DNA of 43,889 nucleotides, taken from contig JAIOYC010000003.1 in the NCBI GenBank assembly GCA_021741325.1, positions 1-43,889 on the forward strand, given 5' to 3'. Below the pieces are notes generated by a model. That model was not told the DNA's origin. It worked only from the letters and a program-made list of their open reading frames with translations, and did no database searches. The DNA comes from Alphaproteobacteria bacterium. Lineage in GTDB: Bacteria > Pseudomonadota > Alphaproteobacteria > Micavibrionales > Micavibrionaceae. The position numbers and the translations under genes were made by a program. Shown here piece after piece: positions 2 through 37,394 of the stretch (its first letter is position 1; each line of letters opens with the position of its first letter).

Positions 2-757
2 CAGTTCCAGGTGAGCGAGGGAGAGTATGTCGAATGCCACAAGGACGAATTAGGCCTGCGAACCGATCTTTTATTCGCGCAGGAGCGTCTTGAAAATCTC
101 ATACGGAAACGCGATGAAATTTCTGAGGAAATAAAGGAAAAACAAGCATTGCTGCTCTGGCTCGAGAAAAAGAGCATGGTTGATAAAAAACAGCTTGATG
201 AAATTCGGGACAATATTCACAAGCTCGAAAAAAATGAGCGCGACCTCCTGAAGAAAATCGAGAAAAAAGAAGAGGAAATCCGTGAGTTGGAAGAAAAACT
301 TCCCCCCGGCTCGCAGGCTTCCATCGGGGAAGAGCCCAGAGAAACAGATCTCCTCAATCCTCTCGCTCCGGCCCCCAGCCCAGCCCTCATAGACCGCCAT
401 AAAGACGGGATCGCCGCCATTATAGAGGCGGCAGGCGGCTCCATGGACAGAAGCGCCCTGGCCACATTATCAGCCCGCTATGGCATAGAAGGCAGCGCGC
501 TGGACCTTCTCATCTCAGAGCTGGACGGCAAGAACGGCCTTTCGATTACTGCCCCCGCTTCACGGAACGAACCTGCTGGATGCAGCTTTGCCTACGGCAT
601 CGATCCCTATCCGCCGGGCGGCGGCCTCCAGCTATGCCTTTCGCCTGTTTTCGAGAAATGTTCCGAAGTCTTGGAAACAGAGACCCCCAAGCCCGAAACA
701 GCCCCCTCTCCCGTGCCCAAACCGCTTCTGGCTCATCAGATTACGGGAATATCCTGA
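2..757 (+). CDS. Coiled-coil protein, 5'-truncated by the window edge
   Basis: The reading frame is open to the left edge of the window, so the true start is probably outside. A GTG at 11 is possible but has too little upstream sequence to judge. Roughly the first 100 residues are a long charged helix rich in Glu and Lys with heptad-like Leu/Ile spacing, very probably a coiled coil. A Pro-rich linker follows, then a compact helical segment with an 'AGGSMDRSALATL' stretch that loosely recalls small TerB-C or winged-helix folds. The tail is Pro-rich and ends 'HQITGIS'. I do not recognise a family. The gene is followed by an AT-rich gap of about 80 bases and then three further plus-strand genes, two of which are cell-wall hydrolases, so it may belong to the same cluster. 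Confidence 0.6.
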   Translation, partial: QFQVSEGEYVECHKDELGLRTDLLFAQERLENLIRKRDEISEEIKEKQALLLWLEKKSMVDKKQLDEIRDNIHKLEKNERDLLKKIEKKEEEIRELEEKLPPGSQASIGEEPRETDLLNPLAPAPSPALIDRHKDGIAAIIEAAGGSMDRSALATLSARYGIEGSALDLLISELDGKNGLSITAPASRNEPAGCSFAYGIDPYPPGGGLQLCLSPVFEKCSEVLETETPKPETAPSPVPKPLLAHQITGIS

Positions 758-837
758 AATATAAGAAATATTTGACCTTTTACTCAAAATATTTTATAAT
801 TTTATTAAAGAATAAATAATAAAATTGTAATTTTAAT

Positions 838-1347
838 ATGGGTGTGATGGTCAGCAAATATTCAGATTCAGGTCCCTATGTCACGTCATTCACGGCTGCC
901 GCCGCGGGTTTACGGAATGACGTGTCCTTTGCCGATCAGATTCTGGAACTCGGCAAGCAGGCGAATCTGGTCGTCATCCCTGAAGGCGGTGTTGTTTATA
1001 CCGAAAACGGGAAGCATTTTACGTTCAGGGATGAAACAAGGAGTTTTCTGGACGCCCCCCTCAGCGCCTCCGTCAATACATTGCGCAAGTCTGGCCTGGA
1101 CACCGTTGAATGGCCTCTTAATTTCCAAGGCAACATAGAACTCGCCCCCGTGATTTCAGAGATTCAGGACCGGGTGGAAAATCTACTTCTCGCCCATGAG
1201 GAAGCCTTTAAGGCGCAGGGAGGCAACGACAGAGTTTCCTTCCGGGACAACGGCGACAGCATCACAAATAAATTTGGCGAAGCCAGCACGGGAACGGGCG
1301 TACCCGCTCCCGTCCGCCTTGGATTCACCGGCAATGGGTTGGAGTAG
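838..1347 (+). CDS. Hypothetical protein upstream of cell-wall hydrolases
   Basis: This is a 169-residue orphan with no signal peptide, membrane segment or motif that I recognise. The N-terminus is Ser/Thr/Ala-rich, the middle is mixed alpha/beta, and the last 30 residues are Gly-rich and probably disordered. Neither ATG at 838 nor the in-frame ATG at 847 has a good Shine-Dalgarno sequence; the upstream DNA is AT-rich and could hold a promoter. It ends 12 bases before the M23/lysozyme-fold gene, so the two are probably co-transcribed. By position it could be an accessory, immunity or chaperone protein for the hydrolases, but nothing in the sequence shows this. Confidence 0.65.
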   Translation: MGVMVSKYSDSGPYVTSFTAAAAGLRNDVSFADQILELGKQANLVVIPEGGVVYTENGKHFTFRDETRSFLDAPLSASVNTLRKSGLDTVEWPLNFQGNIELAPVISEIQDRVENLLLAHEEAFKAQGGNDRVSFRDNGDSITNKFGEASTGTGVPAPVRLGFTGNGLE

Positions 1348-1359
1348 GAACGAGTAGCA

Positions 1360-3126
1360 ATGGTTGGAGAGAATATCTACAAGCACGATTTTAACAGCGA
1401 AGCCGAGGACAAACCCTGGTGGCGGCAGATCGGCAGCTTGTTTTCCGGATGGGGAACGCCGACCTACAAGCGCCGCGAACCCGCCTGGAAGAGCGATCCC
1501 TCCCTGCGCGAGCCATGGGAAAATGAACCCGAGCCTGAAAAAGATTACGCCGCCGGAAAAACGGGCTGGTGGAAAAGAATTCTGGACAAGCTGACGGGCG
1601 AGAACGCCGGCCAGTTCGAGAGAATTCTGGGCAAACTGCTCTCGGGCCTGCAAGGCGTCTTTCAGGGGATAGGACAGATCGGGAAGTCCGAGCCGGACAA
1701 CGCCATCCCGGTGGGGGCGGTCGTGCTGCACGATCCTTCCAAATACGGCACCCCCAACAGCGCTTTTCAGTGGCGCCACAAACATCCGAATAAGAATGTC
1801 AAGGAATCCCGGATGCACGAGGGGACCGACTATCCGGCTCCGCTGAACACCTCCCTGAAAGCGACAGCTGTCTGCCAGGTCGTGGGCATAGGGCACCAGA
1901 AAGGGCTTGGGAAGTATGCCATTCTTCTTCACGGCGTAACCCCGGAAGGACATGGGATCTATACGCTGGATGCCCACCTGAACAAAGTGAATGTCGCCGT
2001 GGGGACGGTTTTAAAGCCGGGCCAGCAATATGCCCTGACAGGAAACACCGGCGCTTACAACACGGGCCCGCACCTCCACCGGGAACTGTGGCTGCCCGAT
2101 AGATCCGGAAAATACTGGTACACATCCTTTGAGCACGGCAAAAACAAAAATCTCGCCGATCGCGCGGTTTGTGATTCTGTCATAGCCCACGCAAAGGGGC
2201 AGCCGACCAAAGCGGGAAGAAGCGCTGAAAAGGTGGCTGTGGACAATCTCTGGCGCGTTGACAAACTCTACCGCCCCGGCGGCAGCAAGTGCATGATCAC
2301 AAGCCCGGAGCAGAAGAGCAAGAAGGCCGGGAAATCCTTTCACCTTCCACCCAAGGATATCCCTGCCAAATACGAGGATTTTCTCAAGAAGGCTGTGGCC
2401 GATTACAACAAGAGAAACGGCACGGATATCGACGTGGGCGAAATGAGCCGTCTTCTGGATATCGAATCGGAGTTTGATGCGCATGCCGTGGGCCAGCCCA
2501 GAACCGTCGACGGCAAAAAGGGAAAAGCTTACGGCCTTGCCCAGTTCTGGGTCTTTGACCATGAATACAGCGATCAGAGTGTTAAAAATAAATACGCGAA
2601 ATACGGTCTGAACACCATCAGCGACCTTTATGACGGCTACAAATCTATCAAGGCCTCCATCCAGAAAGTCGGCGAAAATACCAAGACCTACGGCAATAGC
2701 CTTTTCGCGCTCGTAGCCTACCACCGGGGCGAAAAAGTTCTGTTTGACGCCTGTAAATCTCTCGGCAAAGGGAAAAAGGTCAGCAGCATGACCCCCAAGG
2801 AATTCGTCGATTACTGCAAAAAGAATTCGACCGCGTCGGGAACGCTGGCCTACGTCAAGAAAATCTTGGGCGATGATGCTTATAATGATCTTCTCTCCTT
2901 TGAGGAAACCCCCGCCCTGAAGAAAGATTTCAACGGTGCGCGCACCGAGCCAAACCCGGAAGACGGGCTGGCCGTGATGGATGATCTTCTGCGTCGCGGC
3001 AGTACCTTTGAAAGCGCGGGCACGCTTCATCCTGAATTTTCGGATGCCTCCGCCGGAACAGGAAAAGAAAAACGGCTTGAAACACCCAAACCCACGACGG
3101 TTCCTTTTCTGAGTCTGGTGAGCTGA
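1360..3126 (+). CDS. Two-domain peptidoglycan hydrolase: M23 endopeptidase plus lysozyme-fold domain
   Basis: This 588-residue protein joins two cell-wall enzymes. The first domain, about residues 115-255, is a LytM/M23 zinc endopeptidase: H153 and D157 in 'HEGTD', H206 in 'DAHL' and H238/H240 in 'GPHLHREL' match the metal and catalytic residues of the family. The second, about residues 345-500, looks like a lytic-transglycosylase/lysozyme fold, with E369 or E371 in 'IESEF' as candidate catalytic acid and 'AYGLAQF' at 390-396. Together they could cut both peptide cross-links and glycan strands. The Trp- and Pro-rich N-terminus has no Sec signal peptide or lipobox, so export would need another route or cell lysis. 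The protein ends 'TTVPFLSLVS', similar to the end of the next gene product. The exact lysozyme family is uncertain. Confidence 0.85.
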   Translation: MVGENIYKHDFNSEAEDKPWWRQIGSLFSGWGTPTYKRREPAWKSDPSLREPWENEPEPEKDYAAGKTGWWKRILDKLTGENAGQFERILGKLLSGLQGVFQGIGQIGKSEPDNAIPVGAVVLHDPSKYGTPNSAFQWRHKHPNKNVKESRMHEGTDYPAPLNTSLKATAVCQVVGIGHQKGLGKYAILLHGVTPEGHGIYTLDAHLNKVNVAVGTVLKPGQQYALTGNTGAYNTGPHLHRELWLPDRSGKYWYTSFEHGKNKNLADRAVCDSVIAHAKGQPTKAGRSAEKVAVDNLWRVDKLYRPGGSKCMITSPEQKSKKAGKSFHLPPKDIPAKYEDFLKKAVADYNKRNGTDIDVGEMSRLLDIESEFDAHAVGQPRTVDGKKGKAYGLAQFWVFDHEYSDQSVKNKYAKYGLNTISDLYDGYKSIKASIQKVGENTKTYGNSLFALVAYHRGEKVLFDACKSLGKGKKVSSMTPKEFVDYCKKNSTASGTLAYVKKILGDDAYNDLLSFEETPALKKDFNGARTEPNPEDGLAVMDDLLRRGSTFESAGTLHPEFSDASAGTGKEKRLETPKPTTVPFLSLVS

Positions 3127-3154
3127 CCTTGTAATGAACAAAGAGTGTGAATGA

Positions 3155-4447
3155 ATGAGTGGTCCTGAATCTCCTTTTCTGCGCAAAACCTTTTCCTCCG
3201 TCTCGGAGGGATATAAAGACGCCCTCCTGGAAAGTACGCACCCGCTTCTCTCCCTGCTCAAAACCAGACTTGAAAAAACCAGCGGCGACCGCGTCCACAA
3301 CGCCGAGGGCAAAACCATTGCCGATCTGATCGAGGCGAAGGGTGGGCAAGGACATTACCAGATGCTTCCTTCCACGATTGAAACACTCGCCAAAAGGCTG
3401 GGCTATGACGCAAGCAGCGTTTTCTCGGAAGATATCGAGGAGCGCTTCGCACTGGAGATCATGAAGGACGCCGGATATGACCGCTGCATGGCCGGCACCC
3501 TCTCTCCAAAGCGTTTCATGAAAAATCTTTCAAAAAAATGGGCTGTCGTTCCTGCGCATGGCGATCCCGAGCTCCTCAAGGCCCTCAAAGCCGAAAAGGC
3601 CGCACAACCGCCCGCCAGGAAAAAAAGACGGGGCGGTTCTTATCTATCTGATGAAGAAGGCCTCGCCGGCTCTTCATACGCCCCCGGCCCCATCGGCGCG
3701 GAGGAAAAAACCTATCTGGCCTCCCATCCTCTCCTCGAGATGATCGGACAGGCGGAGCACCGTCCCGGCGCGGACGGGCACAATGTCATGTTCGGGAACA
3801 GAACGCTGGAAGACCTTAAAAAACTCAAAGGCATGAACGCCTTTGTCAAAAATATCGATGCCAAAAATTTCACCGACCTCACCATCAACGAGATGATCGA
3901 GGTCCAGGGCCACTGGCACAAATGGCGGAAAAAGAACCATGTCCGGGGCTCCACAGCCTGCGGTGAATATCAATTCCTGCGGAAAACCCTCATCGGACTT
4001 AAAAAAGAGATGGGACTGACCGGCGAAGAGCGATTCAGCCCCGAAATGCAGGACGGAATGGCCATGCATATGCTGAAACGGCATTGCCGGTATGACGATT
4101 TCCTGGCCGGCGAGATCAGCGAGAAAACCTTTCAGGGAAAAGTCGCCCGGATCTGGGCCTCTGTACCAAAAAACGCAAACGGCAAAAGCGCCTATCACGG
4201 CGACGGCCTGAACGCGGCCCGGGTGGATACGGACTCGGTCCGCACGGCCTTTAAGGACGCCCGGCTCTATGAAATGAATCCTTACGCCAGACAAACGGAC
4301 GCCCTTGCCGGAAGCCCCGCCGCCGGAGACCGTCTCAACGCCGCCTCCGAACGGCTTCTCAGTCAGTTTGATACCGCCAGCGACACCACAAGAGTAGCCA
4401 CGGCTCAACCTATCGTAGCCAGCGTTCCGGTCATGAGTCTGCGCTAA
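3155..4447 (+). CDS. Tandem muramidase-like protein (two phage-lysozyme-type domains)
   Basis: The 430-residue product carries two related domains like those of phage-type muramidases (GH24/GH104-like). The second, about residues 190-345, is more complete: E201 in 'IGQAEHRPGADG' is a candidate catalytic acid and is followed by 'VMFGNR', then 'CGEYQFL' at 269-275 and 'ARIWASVP'. The first, about residues 25-135, keeps 'GHYQML' at 66-71, 'AGTLSPKRF' and 'KKWAVVPA' but seems to lack the N-terminal Glu segment, so it may only bind glycan. A basic, low-complexity linker joins them. There is no signal peptide. The tail 'SVPVMSLR' resembles the tail of the upstream hydrolase, 28 bases away, which suggests a shared fate. 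Domain resemblance is by eye; the precise family is not certain. Confidence 0.75.
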   Translation: MSGPESPFLRKTFSSVSEGYKDALLESTHPLLSLLKTRLEKTSGDRVHNAEGKTIADLIEAKGGQGHYQMLPSTIETLAKRLGYDASSVFSEDIEERFALEIMKDAGYDRCMAGTLSPKRFMKNLSKKWAVVPAHGDPELLKALKAEKAAQPPARKKRRGGSYLSDEEGLAGSSYAPGPIGAEEKTYLASHPLLEMIGQAEHRPGADGHNVMFGNRTLEDLKKLKGMNAFVKNIDAKNFTDLTINEMIEVQGHWHKWRKKNHVRGSTACGEYQFLRKTLIGLKKEMGLTGEERFSPEMQDGMAMHMLKRHCRYDDFLAGEISEKTFQGKVARIWASVPKNANGKSAYHGDGLNAARVDTDSVRTAFKDARLYEMNPYARQTDALAGSPAAGDRLNAASERLLSQFDTASDTTRVATAQPIVASVPVMSLR

Positions 4448-4460
4448 GGGTTGAAAAAAC

Positions 4461-5456
<996 letters not shown>

Positions 5457-7776: not shown

Positions 7777-8289
7777 ATGATCAGACTTCTTCTTTCTCTT
7801 TCGCTATTCGTCGTTCTCTGGCCCTTGAGCGGTTGTGAATCCGTTAAGGACTTCAGCGATGGCGCGCCGCAGGTCGTCGCGGCGCCCGATAGCGTCTCGG
7901 CCATGCTGGCGGAGGCCGCCGACCGTGCGTCCACGGCGCTTGAAGCTCTGGCGGCCGTCGAACAGGCCCGCGGGCCGGGCGTGGCGGCGGAACCCGTGGC
8001 GAATGCACCGGCGGAACTGCGCCGCGCCGTCACCATCACCTGGACCGGCCCGGTTGAGCCCGTGACGAAAATGCTGGCTGAACGCGCCAGCTACACATTC
8101 CTGACCGTCGGTACGCCACCTCCCGTTCCGCTTGTCGTGACGCTGGACATGGAAAACAGGCCCGTGATCGACGCGCTGCGCGATCTGGGCCTGCAAATGG
8201 GTGTCCGCGCGGATATCCGGGTGCAAAGCGACCGGAAAGCCGTTGAAATCCATTACCCGCCCAACACCGGTGTCGGGCAGGAGCCCTAG
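7777..8289 (+). CDS. dotD: DotD-like outer-membrane lipoprotein of a type IVB secretion system
   Basis: DotD (TraH in IncI plasmids) is a lipoprotein of the outer-membrane core of Dot/Icm systems; with DotC it places DotH in the outer membrane. I start at 7777 because this gives a clean lipoprotein signal 'MIRLLLSLSLFVVLWPLSGC' with C20 as lipidated residue; the frame is open further upstream but without sense. The mature part has a helix ('MLAEAADRASTALEALAAVEQA') and then a small alpha/beta domain with 'TWTGPVEPVTKMLAE', 'PLVVTLDMENRPVIDALRDL' and 'VEIHYP', which matches the secretin-N1-like DotD fold. Length of about 170 residues fits the family. It is followed 10 bases later by dotC. Confidence 0.85.
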   Translation: MIRLLLSLSLFVVLWPLSGCESVKDFSDGAPQVVAAPDSVSAMLAEAADRASTALEALAAVEQARGPGVAAEPVANAPAELRRAVTITWTGPVEPVTKMLAERASYTFLTVGTPPPVPLVVTLDMENRPVIDALRDLGLQMGVRADIRVQSDRKAVEIHYPPNTGVGQEP

Positions 8290-8299
8290 GAGAATCTCG

Positions 8300-9172
8300 A
8301 TGGGCAGAACATCTCCAGCCTCCATGGTTCTCGCGCTCGCAGGGGGATTGATCCTCTTTCTCGCCGCATTCGGCACCGCCCTATCTGCGACGGTGGAAGA
8401 ACCCTATGATTCCGCCCCTCCTCCGGCCTCTTTGCCCACACCGCTCCAGGATCTTCAAAATATTCCCAAGATGAATAAAATCATCGAGGGCGAAACAGGG
8501 ATGCCCCTGGATATCCGCAAGGACGCCATCCGGGAGGCTGCCTTTTCCTATGGCGCGCGCGGCGGTCTGGCGTGGCGAACCTATGAGATCCGGCAGGAGC
8601 TCAACCTCCGGGGCCGTTATCTGGACAAGGTGTTCGATTTCGCCCAGCTTCTGATTCCCGCGCCGTCGGGCCTCCTGATTGAGCCCCCTATTATCTCCGA
8701 ATCCATCAACGCCATGATCATTGAGGGCGACGGCCAACAGGCCGCCGTTTCTGATAAAATTTACCACATCATCAACAACGCCGCGATTGTCCCCACGTCC
8801 CGCACCTGGCGGACCTATCTGGAGCGCACCTGGGACGCGGTGGAACCTCCGCCCGATATCCTGCGCCCGGAAAATGAGGAAGAGCGCAAACTCTGGATAG
8901 AGCTGGTCGCCGAAGGATGGGCCGAGGGGATCAAGCAGGCCAATGAAATTTTCCAGGACGACCTCAATCTTCTTCTCGCCGATTTCCGGGGCATGATTCG
9001 CTACCGGACCCTGCTGGCGCAGGGCATGGTTTCTCCGCCCTACGCCCTGCAGGTTGACCGGGGTGTGACCGGCGGCGGGAACGAAATGCGGATCGGAGAC
9101 CGCGCCGTACAAATTACCGGCGTGCCGGAACTCGTAACCGGACATGATCAATGGCAACCCGCAAGCCGATAA
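8300..9172 (+). CDS. dotC: DotC-like outer-membrane-complex protein of a type IVB secretion system
   Basis: DotC (TraI of IncI plasmids) joins DotD and DotH in the outer-membrane core. The ATG at 8300 has AGGAG 7 bases upstream and follows dotD by 10 bases; the longer open frame from 8201 overlaps dotD and is not needed. The family block is clear: 'YGARGGLAWRTYEIRQEL', 'RYLDKVFDFAQLLI', 'LLIEPPIISES', then 'VPTSRTWRTYLERTW' and 'EGWAEGIKQANEIFQDDLNLL'. A Sec signal is present at about residues 8-30 (ending 'GTALSA'), but there is no lipobox cysteine, whereas Legionella DotC is a lipoprotein. The 290-residue length is normal. The 3' end overlaps dotB by 22 bases. Confidence 0.88.
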   Translation: MGRTSPASMVLALAGGLILFLAAFGTALSATVEEPYDSAPPPASLPTPLQDLQNIPKMNKIIEGETGMPLDIRKDAIREAAFSYGARGGLAWRTYEIRQELNLRGRYLDKVFDFAQLLIPAPSGLLIEPPIISESINAMIIEGDGQQAAVSDKIYHIINNAAIVPTSRTWRTYLERTWDAVEPPPDILRPENEEERKLWIELVAEGWAEGIKQANEIFQDDLNLLLADFRGMIRYRTLLAQGMVSPPYALQVDRGVTGGGNEMRIGDRAVQITGVPELVTGHDQWQPASR

Positions 9173-10314
9173 GCCTTCTCAAGGCCGAAGACCAGTTTGC
9201 GGCCACCTGGCCCGCGGAATCTCCCCGATTCACGGATGACCAGATCGACACTTTCATCTTGTGGTGCGTAAAGCAAAATTCCTCGGATATCACCATCCAG
9301 ACCGACCGCCCTGTCTACAATGAAATCAACGGGGTGCTCTATCCCGCCACTTACCGTTCGCTGGACGCGGCCGATATGGCGGTCATGCTCAATAGAATCT
9401 ATGGCCCCGAGGCTCAGGCCCGCCTTGCCTCCGCCCGGGATCTCGACGTCTCCTATGAGATCCGCCCCGACCGCTATACCCGCATACGCTTTCGGGTGAA
9501 CATCACGGCGATCCTCTCCCGGGGCCGGGATTCCGCACAGATCACCATGCGGGTCTTGCCCAGTGATCCGCCCACCATGAAGGATCTCAATATCGAGAAG
9601 GAAATCATCGATGCCTGGGCGCCCCGCCAAGGAGTCGTCATCGTCACAGGACCCACCGGATCGGGGAAAACCACCCTTCTGGCTGCCGGCAACCGAATGA
9701 TGCTGGAGCGTCCAGGCGGCTGCGGCAAAATGCTGACCTACGAATCGCCCATCGAATATGTGTACGATTCCGTGCATAGCCCCCGCTCTCTGGTGGCACA
9801 AACGGAAATTCCCCGCCACCTGCCCGATTTTGCCCGGGGCGTACGCAACGCCCTGCGCCGCAAGCCGGAGATCATTCTGGTGGGCGAGGCGCGCGACCGG
9901 GAAACCATCAACGCCGCCATCGAGGCCGCGCAGACAGGCCACACCGTCTATACAACCACGCACACGCTGGGCGTGGCCAACACCGTCTCGCGGATGATCT
10001 CGACCTATGACATGGGGGAACGGGAAGAACGCGCCCTAGCCCTGATGGAGACCCTGCGGCTCATCGTCACGCAATCGCTGGTGCCCAAAATCGGTGGCGG
10101 GCGGCTGGGCGTGCGGGAATGGATGAAATTCCCCGACGAAGTGCGGGAAAAGCTCATGGATATGCACTTCACCAAATGGCAATCCGAGATCCGCCGTCTC
10201 CTGCCCCAATGGGGTCAGACCATGGAGCGCTCCGCCGAGCAGGTCTTCGAGCTGGGCCTGATCGACCGGCGGCATTATATCTTGCTCTCCTCCAGTACGG
10301 GCGGCGGGGATTAG
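9151..10314 (+). CDS. dotB: DotB-like secretion ATPase (type IVB system)
   Basis: DotB (TraJ of IncI plasmids) is a cytoplasmic hexameric ATPase of the PilT/VirB11 superfamily that powers effector or DNA transfer. The 387-residue product has a PAS-like N-terminal domain ('NSSDITIQTDRPVYNEINGV'), the Walker A motif 'GPTGSGKTT' at 167-175, Asp and His boxes, and Walker B 'PEIILVGEARDRET' around 239-252 with E246 as likely catalytic Glu, then 'QTGHTVYTTTHT'. These features favour DotB over plain PilT. The start lies inside the end of dotC, so translation is probably coupled. The dotD-dotC-dotB order is the same as in Legionella and as traH-traI-traJ in IncI plasmids; no other Dot/Icm gene is in the window. 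Confidence 0.92.
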   Translation: MATRKPISLLKAEDQFAATWPAESPRFTDDQIDTFILWCVKQNSSDITIQTDRPVYNEINGVLYPATYRSLDAADMAVMLNRIYGPEAQARLASARDLDVSYEIRPDRYTRIRFRVNITAILSRGRDSAQITMRVLPSDPPTMKDLNIEKEIIDAWAPRQGVVIVTGPTGSGKTTLLAAGNRMMLERPGGCGKMLTYESPIEYVYDSVHSPRSLVAQTEIPRHLPDFARGVRNALRRKPEIILVGEARDRETINAAIEAAQTGHTVYTTTHTLGVANTVSRMISTYDMGEREERALALMETLRLIVTQSLVPKIGGGRLGVREWMKFPDEVREKLMDMHFTKWQSEIRRLLPQWGQTMERSAEQVFELGLIDRRHYILLSSSTGGGD

Positions 10315-17241: not shown

Positions 17242-17865
17242 TCAATCCCATTCAGGAGAGTACAGATCCCGGACCATTTGGACTCCACCTTCATTTTGGG
17301 AAAAATAATCCCATTCTTTCCTTACAAATCCGGCCCGCTCATAGGCCTCGACAACCTTGGGATTCTCCTCGGCATATACGCAGACGCTAAAAAAACCGTT
17401 TTTCTTGGCGAATACGGCGGTCAGGTCTAAAAGCACCTGCCCAAGCCCCTGCCCCCTGAATTTTGCATCGGTCGCCACGTTGGATATACGCATCGCCCCC
17501 GAACCCGGACGATCCGCCTGGGTTTCAACCGTGACCGTTCCGACGGGCTCGTCTTCGTGGCGCAGAAGAAGGGAACATGCCTTCTCCTCTGGGGCGCTGA
17601 TCTTGCACATCTCATAGCGTGCGTCGTAATCATCCCTGTAATTTTGAAAAAACTTCCCCAGAACAGGAACTTCACTGAGCCAGCGAGAAAGCCCCCACAG
17701 ACGCATCGGTTGCTCATAGCGGGGGTCACACGTATTCCAAATCCGGTGAAACGGCATCCAGCCTTTGAACAGGCTGACTTTCTCCAAGCGAAAACCGCCG
17801 TTCTGATCGGCTTTTACCGACCGGGTTTCAGCGGGATTTGTCTCTATATCTGAAAAGCCACCCAT
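17242..17865 (-). CDS. GNAT-family acetyltransferase
   Basis: The 207-residue product carries a GNAT fold at about 85-200: 'MRISNVATDAKFRGQGLGQVLL' is motif A with the acetyl-CoA loop 'RGQGLG', and 'AEENPKVVEAYERAGFVRK' is motif B. The first 80 residues are not part of the core fold and are rich in aromatic residues. The substrate cannot be told. It lies 30 bases upstream of nspC on the same strand, and could act on a polyamine, but this is only suggested by position. Confidence 0.8.
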   Translation of the reverse strand: MGGFSDIETNPAETRSVKADQNGGFRLEKVSLFKGWMPFHRIWNTCDPRYEQPMRLWGLSRWLSEVPVLGKFFQNYRDDYDARYEMCKISAPEEKACSLLLRHEDEPVGTVTVETQADRPGSGAMRISNVATDAKFRGQGLGQVLLDLTAVFAKKNGFFSVCVYAEENPKVVEAYERAGFVRKEWDYFSQNEGGVQMVRDLYSPEWD

Positions 17866-17926: not shown

Positions 17927-18514
17927 TTAAAATTTAAAATCCTTCACATTCAGGGAATCAAACGCTGACTCATCATATTCGTAATCGCCATCAGGTTCCG
18001 GGATGCCGAGCGCTCTACGGACCATAGAGGTCTGCTCGTTCGGATGCGCATCGGAATCCACAAAATGGCCGCCGGTATAAAATGCCGGATGCACGTTATC
18101 TTTTCCACAGGGATTGGTCTCGACGCAGCTCCACTTGGTAAAAACGTAAAACATTTCCTTATCAGCCCTGTAGCGCCACTCCGTAAAGTCAACGCCTCTA
18201 TCAGTCTTGCCTGAGCACTCATTGAATTCCGGTGTGCGATCGGAAATTTCTGTGAAGACACCACGAATGGTAGTGCCTTCCGAATCCTTCTCCAGAAGCC
18301 TCACCTTGCTATAGCCGTCCTTCAGATTGTCATCGACGCCAAACTGTCCCTGGCTGTAACGGGAGAAAACCACGCCTCCCAAAACAATCATCGAAGTTCC
18401 AAGAACCCAGGGAATCGCCTTGGTGGAAAAATTCTGTACCTTCCCATTGAAGGCATTGAATTCTTCCTTCGCCTTTTTTTCCGCTTCCTTTTTCTTTCTT
18501 AACCAGTTGGGCAT
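17927..18514 (-). CDS. Hypothetical single-pass membrane protein
   Basis: The 195-residue product has a strongly basic, Lys/Glu-rich N-terminal helix (1-20), one membrane segment at about 34-50 ('PWVLGTSMIVLGGVVF') and an outer domain with paired cysteines ('NECSGKT', 'KWSCVETNPCGK') that could form disulfides in the periplasm. The C-terminus is acidic. The ATG at 18514 has AGGAG at good spacing. It follows the ankyrin-like gene by 15 bases and is probably co-transcribed with it. Family unknown. Confidence 0.7.
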   Translation of the reverse strand: MPNWLRKKKEAEKKAKEEFNAFNGKVQNFSTKAIPWVLGTSMIVLGGVVFSRYSQGQFGVDDNLKDGYSKVRLLEKDSEGTTIRGVFTEISDRTPEFNECSGKTDRGVDFTEWRYRADKEMFYVFTKWSCVETNPCGKDNVHPAFYTGGHFVDSDAHPNEQTSMVRRALGIPEPDGDYEYDESAFDSLNVKDFKF

Positions 18515-18529
18515 GGGAAAACTCCTCTC

Positions 18530-19156
18530 CTAAAAACTCGCGGGCTGGCGCCCGTTTCTTATTCCCAATCTGGAAAAAGCAGGAAGAGATATTTTCAGAT
18601 CTTCGGATGTAAAATTGCCGCCCTGTTCACGAACGGTATCAAAAATGAAGGACGCGTTTTTTAAGCATCCGGACGGCTTTAATTTACTATGACTTGGATT
18701 GGTGGTCACAGCATAAAACAGCGCAGATCTGTCTGCTATATTCGCTGCATCGAAACGCATGCCTATGCTCTTCAGAAAGGAAAGCACTCCGACATTGTCT
18801 GGCTTCAGGGCTGCACAATGAACCGCCTTGTCGCCAGTAATACTAGAAGACAGGCTAAAATCCGCCCCTTTGGCATGGAGCCGCCGCATGGCTTCCTCAT
18901 CACCGCTGCAAATCTCATACGCCCGTGTTTCACATTCATACCCGTCCCGACCACCAATCCTTGCGTCATAGCCCAGGTTGGGGTCGGCACCTTCATTAAC
19001 CGCCTGTATGATAAGGTCTACAGAACGTTTTTTTATGCCTTTTAGAAGCCGTTCCCTACTTTGTTGACTTTGATAGACGGGGTCCACGTCCAGGATTTGG
19101 GATGTATCCGCGCTTCTCTCTTCGAAAAGACCCTTTAAAAAATTCGGCAGCTTCAT
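18530..19156 (-). CDS. Ankyrin-repeat-like protein
   Basis: The 208-residue product has at least three segments that read as ankyrin repeats: 'LIIQAVNEGADPNLG' (about 48-62), 'AMRRLHAKGADFSL' (about 88-101) followed by 'DKAVHCAALK', and 'VLSFLKSIGMRFDAANIADRSALFYAV'. Ankyrin proteins bind other proteins and are common among effectors of Dot/Icm systems, but also occur in ordinary bacterial proteins. There is no signal peptide. I take the ATG at 19156; a GTG directly before it is the alternative. It leads a two-gene unit with the membrane protein downstream, divergent from gmd. Confidence 0.7.
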   Translation of the reverse strand: MKLPNFLKGLFEERSADTSQILDVDPVYQSQQSRERLLKGIKKRSVDLIIQAVNEGADPNLGYDARIGGRDGYECETRAYEICSGDEEAMRRLHAKGADFSLSSSITGDKAVHCAALKPDNVGVLSFLKSIGMRFDAANIADRSALFYAVTTNPSHSKLKPSGCLKNASFIFDTVREQGGNFTSEDLKISLPAFSRLGIRNGRQPASF

Positions 19157-19272
19157 CACGACACCCTTGTTTTTTATTATAGTTCAGAAAATACCATAAT
19201 TATTCATAAAAATCAAATTTCACCTCCTATAAACCATTTACATTCCCCTCCAAATCAGGGGAAAGTTTCCTT

Positions 19273-33806: not shown

Positions 33807-34658
33807 ATGATCCGGCTTCTGACTGTTTTTGTCACTTTATTGACCCTGTCCGCTCCGGCCATAGCCGCCGAAAGCACGGCGCTGCCGGAAATGCCCCCGC
33901 CGATCCGCAGCCTCTCCGACGAGGGCGCGCAGATCCGTTATTTGGGGCGCGATTACGGACTTGATTCCTGGCTGGCGATCAAAAACGGGCAGGAGCAATA
34001 TTTCTACGTTCTCCCCGGCGGCGAAGCCTTCGTCATGGGGGTTCTCTTCGACAAGGACGGCAAGGCCATCACCGTCGAACAGGTCCGCCGCCTTCAGCAG
34101 GAAGGCGACAACATGCTCGATACGCTCGCCGCGGGGGAGCTTGACTCCCTGGCCGGTGTCCGGAAATCCGGGAAAAACACCGTAAAATTTTCCTCCCCGG
34201 CGGAGCAGCTCTACAACGACATCGAAAACGCGAACTGGGTTCCCCTGGGCAAAGTGGGCGCGCCGGTGATCTACAGCTTTATTGATCCGCAATGCCCCCA
34301 CTGCCACAGCTTCATCAACGACCTTAAGGATTCCTATATCGACAAGGGCCGGGTGCAGGTACGCATCGTGCCCGTCGGCTTCCGGGATGAAACCAAGGCC
34401 CAGGCCGCCTATCTGATTGCCGCACCCGACCCCCAGGGTCTCTGGTTCCGGCACATGGAAGGCGACAAGACCGCCCTGCCCGCGAAGGCTGAAATCAACC
34501 AGCAGGGCGTCCAGCGCAACCTGGCCATCATGCAGACCTGGAAATTCGACGTGACGCCCCTGATCGTTTACCGGGCCAAGGACGGCACCGTGAAACTGGT
34601 GCGAGGCCGCCCGAAGGACATCCCCGCCCTGATCGCCGATCTGGGGGCAAGAGGATAA
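33807..34658 (+). CDS. DsbC/DsbG-like periplasmic thiol-disulfide protein
   Basis: The 283-residue protein has a Sec signal 'MIRLLTVFVTLLTLSAPAIA' (start 33807 with GAGGAG; the frame to 33747 is not needed), a small N-terminal dimer domain with the 'GGEAFVMGVLFDKDGKAIT' pattern of DsbC/DsbG, and a thioredoxin domain with active site C163-P-H-C166 in 'DPQCPHCHSF' and cis-Pro in 'DVTPLIVY'. The CPHC motif is like DsbA or DsbG-related proteins. It probably isomerises or protects cysteines of secreted proteins. Related proteins occur with conjugation and type IV secretion genes, but here it stands alone. Confidence 0.88.
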   Translation: MIRLLTVFVTLLTLSAPAIAAESTALPEMPPPIRSLSDEGAQIRYLGRDYGLDSWLAIKNGQEQYFYVLPGGEAFVMGVLFDKDGKAITVEQVRRLQQEGDNMLDTLAAGELDSLAGVRKSGKNTVKFSSPAEQLYNDIENANWVPLGKVGAPVIYSFIDPQCPHCHSFINDLKDSYIDKGRVQVRIVPVGFRDETKAQAAYLIAAPDPQGLWFRHMEGDKTALPAKAEINQQGVQRNLAIMQTWKFDVTPLIVYRAKDGTVKLVRGRPKDIPALIADLGARG

Positions 34659-34668
34659 CCTTAAAACA

Positions 34669-34709
34669 AGACCGTTTTCGCCCTTTTATAACGAGGGCGA
34701 AAACGGTCT
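34669..34709. terminator. Long stem-loop between convergent genes
   Basis: AGACCGTTTTCGCCCT and AGGGCGAAAACGGTCT form a 16-bp perfect stem with a 9-base loop. It lies between the Dsb-like gene and the convergent 85-residue orphan; on the minus strand a TGTTTT follows. It can serve as a two-way terminator. Confidence 0.75.
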
Positions 34710-34732
34710 GGAATTGAGCATATAAAGGCGAA

Positions 34733-34990
34733 TTATAATTGCATAATAATGTGCTCTTTGCTGGCCTGAACTTCCGCTTCCACCCCGGTTATCCGCGCTT
34801 GAATAGTCCCTAAACTTTCTTCAACCACATATTCTTTATCTTGAGGCCCATATGAAAAAGTTGAATGACCTAAATCTACAGATCCTACAGACGCAATCGG
34901 AGAGTTAATTTTATCCAACAGGAAAAGCCTTTTTTTGCTTTCGGTATCTTTATTGAATTCGTTTTTAATTGTTAAAATTATTCCACTCAT
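34733..34990 (-). CDS. Small hypothetical protein (85 aa)
   Basis: The product is beta-rich in its first half ('GIILTIKNEF') and helical at the end ('VEAEVQASKEHIIMQL'). There is no known domain, signal peptide or membrane segment. The ATG at 34990 has AGGAGT before it at 6-7 bases, so it is very probably translated. The gene is markedly AT-rich compared with the Dsb-like gene. The 168 bases upstream to the Ala/Pro-rich protein gene show no other feature. Function unknown. Confidence 0.65.
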   Translation of the reverse strand: MSGIILTIKNEFNKDTESKKRLFLLDKINSPIASVGSVDLGHSTFSYGPQDKEYVVEESLGTIQARITGVEAEVQASKEHIIMQL

Positions 34991-35158
34991 ATGAATACTC
35001 CTTTTGTTACAGCACCCCTCTTGGCATAACCTTATTAATCTGTCAATCTAATAAGTGTTTGTTTTTCAATCTCTTCAAATGAACCCCTTAAAAATCTCCT
35101 CAATATAGGCGATAATGAATCAAGAGCCTTTAATATTGCGTATGGAGCCCTTGCCCTG

Positions 35159-36265
35159 ATGACCCCCCGCACGGAACATTTGATCCGGATTTTAGAAAAA
35201 ATCGGCCTCCCGCTGATGCTCTCCGCCATGACCGTACCCACCGAGTCGGGGGATGCGGCCGATGATGCCCGAACCGTCGCGGCCCTTCTCTCCCGGACGG
35301 TGCAGGCGGGAATCGATCTCGGGCGCCTGACGGAATTTTCGATGGATGGCGAGAACGGCGATTCCCTGCGCGTGGCGCTGGCGGGGATTGCGGGTCCTCT
35401 GGTCGCCGCCCTGTACCAGAAAAATGGCGCGCCTCCCGACGATTCCGACTTGAAAAAAACCGCCGGCGCCCTGCAGGCCGTCTTGAGCTTCGCGCAGAAT
35501 TTCGAACCGTCCCAGAGCATCCGCCTGGAAGAACTGGAAGCTCGGGGCCAGGCCGCCGATAAGGATCAGGCCGGCATTCAATATCTTCAGGCTTTCACGC
35601 CCGTCGTCGATGCCGTGGCGGCCTTTTCTTTTGGACGGCCCGAGCAGACACTCATGACCGATATCGCCTCCCGCTTGAGCGCCCGGCCCCCGGCCTTCCG
35701 CGAACGGGCTTTTCCGGGTGGCATGGACCCCGCCGCTGCCGCAAGCCTTGATCTGGCTCTTTTGCGCACAATGGCCCAACTCTACGCTGCCGCGCACCGG
35801 CAGATCACAGCCCGCCTCCTCTCTATGGACGGCGCAGGCGCTCCCTCCCTTTCGCTCGATGACGTCTGGACCGGCTTTGAGCTCCGTGCGGGAATTCTCG
35901 AAGCACTTGCGGCCAATCTTCTGCCCGGCGCTCAAAACAGCTCAACCCAAAGCCCCGCTCCGCAAACCCCCGCAGCCTCACCGGCCGCTCCGCTGAAATC
36001 TTCCCCCATCGCTGCGGCGTCCGCATCCGGAGCCCCCGCCGTCAATCCCATGGCCATGTTTGCCCAGCCCAAAGCAGCGGAGACCGTCGCATCAAAACCA
36101 CCAGAGGCTCCTCCACCCGCCGTCGAACCCGCAACCCGCCGTACGGCCCCGGTGCCAGGCGAAGCCGTGCCGCCGCTGACCGCGCCGACGGAGGAAAAAG
36201 AAGAAAAACCTGCCAAAAACCCGATGTCCTTCTTCGGCGGGAAACCGAAAGAAGATGACGAATAA
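35159..36265 (+). CDS. Hypothetical Ala/Pro-rich protein with NPMxxF motifs
   Basis: The 368-residue product has a helical N-terminal region (1-260) rich in Ala and Leu, then about 100 residues of Ala/Pro-rich disordered linker. Two short motifs repeat in the linker: 'VNPMAMFAQPK' and 'KNPMSFFGGKPKEDDE', the latter at the C-terminus. Such repeated motifs often bind a partner protein. There is no signal peptide. It precedes a lytic transglycosylase gene by 40 bases, so the two are probably one operon. This could be a secretion or cell-envelope component; family not recognised. The start (ATG 35159) has only a distant GGAG. Confidence 0.65.
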   Translation: MTPRTEHLIRILEKIGLPLMLSAMTVPTESGDAADDARTVAALLSRTVQAGIDLGRLTEFSMDGENGDSLRVALAGIAGPLVAALYQKNGAPPDDSDLKKTAGALQAVLSFAQNFEPSQSIRLEELEARGQAADKDQAGIQYLQAFTPVVDAVAAFSFGRPEQTLMTDIASRLSARPPAFRERAFPGGMDPAAAASLDLALLRTMAQLYAAAHRQITARLLSMDGAGAPSLSLDDVWTGFELRAGILEALAANLLPGAQNSSTQSPAPQTPAASPAAPLKSSPIAAASASGAPAVNPMAMFAQPKAAETVASKPPEAPPPAVEPATRRTAPVPGEAVPPLTAPTEEKEEKPAKNPMSFFGGKPKEDDE

Positions 36266-36305
36266 AGAAGAATGACGTATAGAGTGTGGAGAAAAGAGAA
36301 AGATT

Positions 36306-36722
36306 ATGTCCGCCGCTAAAGTCCTTGCCGCCTGCCTGATGCTGGCCTCGCAAACCTACGAGGTCCCGCCCGCCGTGCTTGTGGGGATTTATAAGGCTGA
36401 AGGCGGCAAGGTAGGACAGGAAGTCGGCAACACAAACGGCTCGCAGGACTTGGGGCCCATGCAGATCAACACAATCTGGATGCCCGAGCTTTCAAAGAAA
36501 TGGGGCGTGAGCGAAAAAACCGCCAAGAAATGGGTCCGCGATGACCCCTGCACGAATGTCGGCGTCGCGGCCTGGATTTTGCGCAGCCATCTGGACGAGA
36601 CCCAGAACCTTTCCCAGGCCATCGCGCACTATCACTCCCGCACGCCCCTCCATGGGACGAAGTACAAAACCAAAGTCATTTCCATCCTGAAGGACAACGG
36701 CCTCGTGAAGACGGACCGTTAG
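36306..36722 (+). CDS. Lytic transglycosylase (SLT domain, VirB1-like size)
   Basis: The 138-residue protein is a single SLT domain: E32 in 'GIYKAEGG' as catalytic acid, 'GSQDLGPMQIN' at 46-56, 'CTNVGVAAWILRSHL' and 'AIAHYHSRTP'. It cuts glycan strands, and small stand-alone enzymes of this kind often open the wall for type IV secretion or pilus machines. There is no clear cleavable signal; the hydrophobic start is part of the fold. It follows the Ala/Pro-rich gene in a likely operon. With dotDCB in the same window, a link to the type IVB system is possible, but not proven by position, as they are 26 kb apart. Confidence 0.85.
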   Translation: MSAAKVLAACLMLASQTYEVPPAVLVGIYKAEGGKVGQEVGNTNGSQDLGPMQINTIWMPELSKKWGVSEKTAKKWVRDDPCTNVGVAAWILRSHLDETQNLSQAIAHYHSRTPLHGTKYKTKVISILKDNGLVKTDR

Positions 36723-36743: not shown

Positions 36744-37394
36744 CTACAGACTCATGAAATAAGTTTTCTTAGGAGCGTCGGGCGGAGGAATACCCTCAAG
36801 CAGCAATTTTTGATCCACCTGATTCTGGATTTCCTTAAGATTCGTTTGAATGGACAAAAACAGCGGAAGTTCTCCTGAATCGTTCATTTTTTTCATAACA
36901 TCCTCTTTGGGCCGTTCCTGCAGACCGTATTCCTCCACCAGTTTATGAGCAGCCGGATGGTCTGGATTAACCTTAACGGCCAGTTCCTTATAACCGGACT
37001 GGCCGTAATGATGGACTGCAGCGTCGAATAAGATGTTTAGGCAATTTTGCCCGCGGTGTTTTTGAAAGACATAGGCATTGCGAAGAACGGCTTTTTTAAT
37101 AGGCCTGTAAGGCTCGGAATAGCCGTAACCGGCAAGATTCCCGCTGTAATCTTCGAGTAAAATTGCTTCCTCAAAAGAATCAGTGACCTGCGGATGGCGT
37201 TTTCTGGCTAAATTCAATGCTCTGAGTTCTATCTCTTTTGTCGTCCCGGAGATTTTATAATCTTCCTCGCTGCCATCCCGGGCTCCTGCCTCCATGACAT
37301 CATACCAATACCCCACCTTCTCTTGCCCCTCGAGAAGGTGAACGCTAAATCCATTCCGGCCATATTTTTTTTTCATAGGCCGAGATATAGCCAT
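36744..37394 (-). CDS. GNAT-like protein
   Basis: The 216-residue product has a probable GNAT fold: 'RNAYVFQKHRGQNCLNILFD' resembles motif A and 'VNPDHPAAHKLVEEYGLQ' resembles motif B. The acetyl-CoA loop is not the standard R/Q-x-x-G-x-G/A, so binding may be weak or changed. The last 60 residues extend beyond the fold and end 'KKTYFMSL', which is reminiscent of the ends of the two hydrolases at the left of the window. There is no signal peptide. The gene lies between the transglycosylase (convergent) and the TPP riboswitch (divergent). Confidence 0.6.
   Translation of the reverse strand: MAISRPMKKKYGRNGFSVHLLEGQEKVGYWYDVMEAGARDGSEEDYKISGTTKEIELRALNLARKRHPQVTDSFEEAILLEDYSGNLAGYGYSEPYRPIKKAVLRNAYVFQKHRGQNCLNILFDAAVHHYGQSGYKELAVKVNPDHPAAHKLVEEYGLQERPKEDVMKKMNDSGELPLFLSIQTNLKEIQNQVDQKLLLEGIPPPDAPKKTYFMSL

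What the first reader, a model, noticed from the sequence alone, without database searches (positions are those of the whole stretch)
1360..4447. Peptidoglycan hydrolases without signal peptides that share a hydrophobic '-SL-' tail
Two adjacent wall-degrading enzymes (M23 plus lysozyme fold; double muramidase) lack Sec signals but end 'VPFLSLVS' and 'VPVMSLR'. The GNAT-like protein at 36744-37394 ends 'YFMSL'. A shared extreme C-terminal motif could be an export signal, for example for a contact-dependent or type IV route used in predation on other bacteria.
Basis: inference. Interest (0 to 1): 0.6.

Follow-up and report, generated by a model that had tools for sequence, protein, structure and literature searches.

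The report
Predator cell-wall enzymes with uncharged tails
A relative of the bacteria-eating bacterium Micavibrio carries wall-cutting enzymes that lack the usual export signal but share an uncharged tail with the mostly unrelated proteins found at the same chromosomal spot in its relatives, which suggests, without proving it, a set of weapons fired into prey through a type IVB secretion machine.

Summary
The two hydrolases are real: M23+SLT (1360-3126) and a lambda-lysozyme-like double muramidase (3155-4447). Neither has a Sec-type signal. The literal "-SL-" motif is not enriched: 4 of 555 genes, 3 of them the cited ones. The idea behind it survives in a broader form.

In this family (Micavibrio relatives) the gap between malate dehydrogenase and sucC, 31-657 bp in sister families, holds 1.4-6 kb of exchangeable cargo: several unrelated peptidoglycan hydrolase types plus orphans, nearly all without signal peptides. 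Their last 8-10 residues lack charge (last 8 uncharged in 39/76 cargo proteins versus 21/348 neighbours, p=3e-19), and only there. A tail model trained on orphan cargo of other genomes ranks the window's four operon genes high (p=1.5e-4).

A Dot/Icm-type IVB secretion system is conserved across the order (DotB in 86/95 genomes); dotDCB lies 3.3 kb away; T6SS is absent. Best reading: candidate T4BSS effectors aimed at prey walls, marked by an uncharged C-terminal tail. Export, route and signal are inferred, not shown. Against it: the tail alone is unspecific, and cargo is not linked to dotB elsewhere. Type I secretion is the main rival.

The parts
2..757 (+). first gene of the operon, cut by the contig start; coiled-coil protein, C-terminal part related to orphan cargo of relatives; ends LLAHQITGIS
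   Evidence: tail at 98th percentile of own genes
838..1347 (+). orphan 169 aa cargo gene, no family found
   Evidence: tail at 90th percentile
1360..3126 (+). M23 endopeptidase (about 1810-2091) plus SLT transglycosylase (about 2443-2757) protein without Sec-type signal
   Evidence: M23 5.6e-15, SLT 1.9e-8; tail at 95th percentile
3094..3123 (+). last 10 codons, TTVPFLSLVS: uncharged tail, candidate export signal
   Evidence: sequence; tail property
3155..4447 (+). double lambda-lysozyme-like muramidase without Sec-type signal; well-folded domain about 3716-4279, weaker N-terminal repeat about 3284-3604
   Evidence: tail at 92nd percentile
4415..4444 (+). last 10 codons, VASVPVMSLR: disordered tail, candidate export signal
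   Evidence: sequence; pLDDT about 40
4461..5414 (-). malate dehydrogenase, conserved border of the cargo slot
7777..8289 (+). dotD, T4BSS outer-membrane lipoprotein
   Evidence: (PF16816 1.1e-33)
8324..9172 (+). dotC (T4SS_TraI family)
   Evidence: PF16932 6.7e-78
9151..10314 (+). dotB, T4BSS ATPase
   Evidence: TIGR02524 4.4e-118; below curated cut-off
33807..36722 (+). three genes (thioredoxin-like 33807-34658, unknown 35159-36265, SLT lytic transglycosylase 36306-36722) that lie beside dotD in relative G021: probable T4BSS accessory genes
36744..37394 (-). GNAT-like protein ending KKTYFMSL; weak candidate cargo beside the T4BSS accessory genes
   Evidence: 90th percentile

Best explanation
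The operon at 2-4447 is this genome's copy of a cargo island, conserved in position within the family, that encodes proteins meant to leave the cell in one step. The peptidoglycan hydrolases among them are candidate prey-directed effectors of the order-wide Dot/Icm-type (IVB) secretion system. An uncharged, disordered C-terminal tail of about 8-10 residues, ending in aliphatic or small residues, is the likely recognition signal read by the coupling complex. On contact the enzymes would reach the prey periplasm and cut peptidoglycan (M23: peptide cross-links; SLT and lambda-type: glycan strands). Shown by computation: domains, no Sec-type signal by hydropathy, the cargo slot, the tail property and its confinement to the C-terminus, T4BSS genes, no T6SS. 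Inferred: that the proteins are exported (about 0.7), that the route is the T4BSS (about 0.5), that the tail is the signal, and that prey wall is the target.
For: Cargo slot between mdh and sucC filled in 15/16 genomes of the family and 3/3 of f7, closed in 15/15 of other families. Several unrelated wall-hydrolase types exchange in it. Tail depleted of charge only at the extreme C-terminus, in 23/23 loci; AUC 0.89 leaving genera out. Orphan-trained tail model ranks window operon genes high, p=1.5e-4; in one family the tail goes with absence of a Sec signal. T4BSS conserved: DotB 86/95, DotH 51/58, DotN 54/58; dotDCB in the window. No T6SS in 58 genomes. Precedents: PMC9519443, PMC11253643.
Against: dotB neighbourhoods of 22 relatives hold no such hydrolases. 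The tail is not specific: 37 of 504 signal-less genes in 800 kb of G021 pass, several with ordinary domains. Sister families have the T4BSS but a closed slot. Two homologous muramidases outside the slot have charged tails. Tails lack the acidic E-block described for many Legionella effectors (PMC11602083). DotH and DotN were not found in this incomplete MAG. No immunity genes were identified.
Confidence: 0.45

Rival explanations
1. The cargo is exported by a type I (ABC/TolC) system, which also reads an uncleaved C-terminal signal; the uncharged tail is that signal.
For: M. aeruginosavorus has a complete type I system, up-regulated during attachment (PMC3189940). C-terminal, uncleaved signals are the rule in type I export (established knowledge). 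The tail has no fixed sequence.
Against: No RTX-type family was found in the cargo. Of the two RTX-like proteins found in fetched loci, one has a charged, low-scoring tail and one a moderately high-scoring tail: too few to decide. Type I would release the enzymes to the medium and not into a prey periplasm.
Confidence: 0.2
2. The tails are merely disordered, low-complexity ends typical of fast-evolving proteins and are not a signal; the enzymes are released by lysis of the predator or act in its own envelope.
For: Similar tails occur on some proteins with ordinary domains. The tails have no fixed sequence motif.
Against: Depletion of charge is confined to the last 8-10 residues; N-termini and internal Pro-rich stretches of the same proteins are normally charged. 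It goes with absence of a Sec signal inside a homologous family. Without a Sec-type signal the enzymes could not reach the predator's own wall by the usual route.
Confidence: 0.2
3. The genes are remnants of a prophage or phage tail: endolysins released by a holin or carried in a virion.
For: The muramidase matches endolysin families and phage lysozymes at 28-34% identity over about half its length; endolysins lack Sec signals as a rule.
Against: No phage genes were recognised around the operon in the window; the neighbours are housekeeping and T4BSS genes. The slot is at the same place in many genera with non-phage orphans. No phage match covers 80% of the protein.
Confidence: 0.08

Closest known systems
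Pseudomonas putida IsoF Kib T4BSS and its effector-immunity pair (PMC9519443)
   Same: A type IVB system used by one bacterium against others, with an effector lacking an N-terminal signal.
   Different: There a horizontally acquired island in few strains, with a linked effector-immunity pair predicted cytosolic; here an order-wide system, unlinked cargo and wall hydrolases.
Stenotrophomonas maltophilia T4SS effector TfcB (PMC11253643) and Xanthomonas X-Tfes
   Same: Signal-less T4SS effector resembling a GH19 endolysin that may act on cell wall; effectors of varied enzymatic type share a C-terminal transport region. One cargo protein here also has a GH19 domain.
   Different: They use a type IVA (VirB/D4) system and a folded XVIPCD domain; here the system is Dot/Icm-type and the shared part is a short disordered tail.
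Legionella Dot/Icm effectors (PMC11602083)
   Same: Uncleaved C-terminal signal without sequence homology, enriched in small and polar residues, read by a coupling complex (DotL/M/N, IcmSW).
   Different: Many Legionella signals carry an acidic E-block; these tails avoid charge. Targets there are eukaryotic cells.
Phage lambda lysozyme and related endolysins (phrog_90)
   Same: Fold and sequence of the muramidase domain.
   Different: Chromosomal cargo operon, duplicated domain, disordered C-terminal tail, no phage genes recognised nearby.

Membership tests
T4BSS (Dot/Icm) effectors | Translocation dependent on the T4BSS | not testable with these tools
   Needs mutants and a transfer assay.
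T4BSS (Dot/Icm) effectors | A T4BSS in the same genome | tested here: met
   dotDCB in the window and a homolog of the large protein of the G021 dot cluster on contig C4. DotH and DotN not found in this 85% complete MAG but present in most relatives.
T4BSS (Dot/Icm) effectors | No N-terminal Sec signal | tested here: met
   Hydropathy of the N-terminus; SignalP not available.
T4BSS (Dot/Icm) effectors | C-terminal signal of known type (acidic E-block) | tested here: not met
   Acidic residues are depleted in the last 10 positions. The E-block is not found in all known effectors (PMC11602083), so this lowers but does not exclude membership.
Peptidoglycan hydrolases (M23, SLT, lambda-type muramidase) | Catalytic domain recognised by profile or fold | tested here: met
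   near-invariant Glu201 in an alignment of 19 homologs; enzyme activity untested
T6SS effectors | A T6SS in the genome | tested here: not met
   Sheath family PF05943 absent from this and 57 related genomes, while the E. coli control gave a match.
Type I (RTX-like) substrates | C-terminal RTX repeats and a type I system | tested here: inconclusive
   No RTX-type family in the cargo; type I components not searched here.
Prophage endolysin | Phage gene context | tested here: not met
   Neighbours are housekeeping and T4BSS genes; only remote phage similarity.

The most novel reading that the evidence does not exclude
Micavibrio-like predators deploy, through a T4BSS conserved across their order, an arsenal of exchangeable prey-directed wall hydrolases and orphan effectors. 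It is encoded in a fixed slot between mdh and sucC and tagged by a previously undescribed uncharged C-terminal export signal. This would be a main molecular weapon of epibiotic predation, in a group whose first genome paper reported no type IV secretion system.
Probability: 0.35. Interest if true: 0.88.

Novelty: new variant of a known kind. Interest (0 to 1): 0.68.

Why it matters
[quoted passage not shown] A T4BSS conserved across the order, together with a fixed locus of signal-less wall hydrolases, gives a concrete and testable mechanism. If the tail is a signal, it offers a sequence handle for finding further effectors and a case of a Dot/Icm-type system used for feeding on bacteria.

Tried and rejected
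The literal "-SL-" motif: not enriched, absent from cargo tails of relatives. T6SS as the route: absent. Prophage origin of the operon: endolysin similarity is real but no phage context was recognised. Cargo clustered around dotB in relatives: not found. Tail score as a stand-alone effector finder: too unspecific. M23 homologs split by N-terminal hydrophobicity did not differ significantly in tail score (p=0.16); that set mixes cargo and ordinary envelope proteins. Literature searches found no paper on a type IVB secretion system in Micavibrio in the open-access set; subscription papers were not searchable.

Full report
What is in the window. The genome is an 84.75%-complete MAG of 1.69 Mb. 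Its DotB protein is 78-84% identical to proteins of MAGs named Micavibrio sp. or Alphaproteobacteria bacterium. The finding's two genes are real. The first has an M23 domain and an SLT domain. The second matches endolysin family phrog_90 in two stretches. An AlphaFold model from 19 homologs folds its C-terminal half at pLDDT above 90 and leaves the last 20 or so residues disordered. The best solved match is lambda lysozyme (probability 1.00, TM-score 0.59 on the target, but E only 0.03). Neither protein has a Sec-type N-terminus by eye and hydropathy. They end a run of four same-strand genes cut by the contig start and are followed by malate dehydrogenase on the other strand.

The literal motif fails. 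In 555 genes called from 614 kb of this genome, [VILMFY]2-S-L-x(0,2)-end occurs four times: the three cited proteins and one flagellar-type protein. Shuffled tails give 0.8 on average and internal truncations 0.9. The three were picked after seeing them, so this is no evidence of enrichment. Homologs of the muramidase end differently: PALAIQ, PAPALS, AGLALS, GMGAAV.

A conserved cargo slot. Where mdh and sucC are on one contig, they are 31-657 bp apart in 15 of 15 genomes of the other families. They are at least 1.4 kb apart in 15 of 16 genomes of the window's family and in 3 of 3 of family f7 (Fisher p=9e-9); two genomes with the genes 94 kb apart were left out. The gap is filled by about one to six genes that change from genus to genus. 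Recognisable members are M23, SLT, GH108, GH19, CHAP and lambda-type muramidase; most others match nothing. In genomes whose malate dehydrogenase is of another type the cargo is still in that place. In the window's genome sucC lies on another contig with different neighbours, so only the mdh side of the slot is kept, as in G028 and G055.

A shared tail, more loosely defined than "-SL-". Of 76 distinct signal-less cargo proteins, 39 have no charged residue in the last eight positions, against 21 of 348 neighbouring genes (p=2.7e-19). Charge rises back towards normal beyond position -10. N-termini of the same proteins are normally charged, and Pro-rich stretches elsewhere in them carry about twice as much charge (p=4e-10). 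All 23 loci with enough neighbours show the difference. A simple tail model separates cargo from neighbours with AUC 0.89 when genera are left out in turn. Trained only on orphan cargo from other genomes, it places the window operon's genes at percentiles 98, 90, 95 and 92 of this genome (p=1.5e-4) and the GNAT-like protein at 90. In one SLT-like family found in the slot, the eight clearly signal-less members all score at about the 95th percentile or above. Of the other five, three or four with a Sec-type start score at the 23rd to 87th percentile, one Sec-bearing member has the tail, and one has an uncertain start.

Limits of the tail. It is not a stand-alone predictor. In 800 kb of relative G021, 37 of 504 signal-less genes pass, and several carry ordinary domains. 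Two muramidases outside the slot end in LLEKK and LLEKR.

The machine. The window holds dotD, dotC and dotB, plus three genes that flank dotD in relative G021. A homolog (72% identity) of the large protein of the G021 dot cluster, in the position expected of DotO/IcmB but not recognised by Pfam or NCBIfam, starts about 305 bp from the end of contig C4, so the genes expected upstream of it would lie beyond the contig. DotB is found in 86 of 95 genomes of the order, DotH in 51 of 58 and the coupling-complex protein IcmJ/DotN in 54 of 58; the DotB matches are strong but below the curated cut-off. The G021 cluster also has DotG-, DotF- and DotI-like proteins. T6SS sheath protein is absent from all 58 genomes tested. 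The 2011 M. aeruginosavorus paper reported type I and II but no type III or IV systems (PMC3189940); that species itself was not checked here.

Interpretation. Wall hydrolases without Sec signals, in a lineage related to a predator, in a slot with changing cargo, with a shared C-terminal property and a Dot/Icm-type system available, are best read as candidate T4BSS effectors aimed at prey wall. Bacterial targets for a T4BSS are precedented (PMC9519443), and a T4SS effector resembling a wall hydrolase is known (PMC11253643). The tails differ from the acidic E-block described for many Legionella effectors (PMC11602083). The link to the T4BSS rests on availability and exclusion: in 22 relatives the region around dotB holds no such hydrolases, so the 3.3 kb closeness in the window may be accidental. 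Type I secretion, which also reads C-terminal signals, is the main rival and was not tested directly. That this organism is itself a predator is inferred from kinship only.

Noticed in passing
7777-10314; L181 and L182 (relative G021): A Dot/Icm-type T4BSS is conserved across the order, although the 2011 Micavibrio aeruginosavorus genome paper reported no type IV secretion system (PMC3189940).
   Followed up: yes
mdh locus in relatives (e.g. L115, L116, L127, L131, L155, L156, L160-L162, L164, L170, L171, L174): The malate dehydrogenase next to the cargo slot is replaced by a second, distantly related type in many genera, at the same place on the chromosome.
   Followed up: no
L012:8841-14147 and L016:1727-5680 (same genome as the window): Very large signal-less orphans (1768 and 1317 aa) with Pro-rich, weakly charged tails: possible further cargo.
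   Followed up: partly
L010:13575-14243; window 17242-17865 and 36744-37394: Three GNAT-like proteins in one small genome; the L010 one has a Pro-rich uncharged end and the one at 36744 ends YFMSL beside T4BSS accessory genes.
   Followed up: no
L129:3398-15499: In relative G027 a signal-less muramidase with a charged tail sits in an array of related short and long genes on one strand.
   Followed up: no
18530-19159 (minus): A 209 aa protein that looks ankyrin-like by eye, next to a 195 aa orphan (17927-18514); NCBIfam finds no family for either.
   Followed up: no
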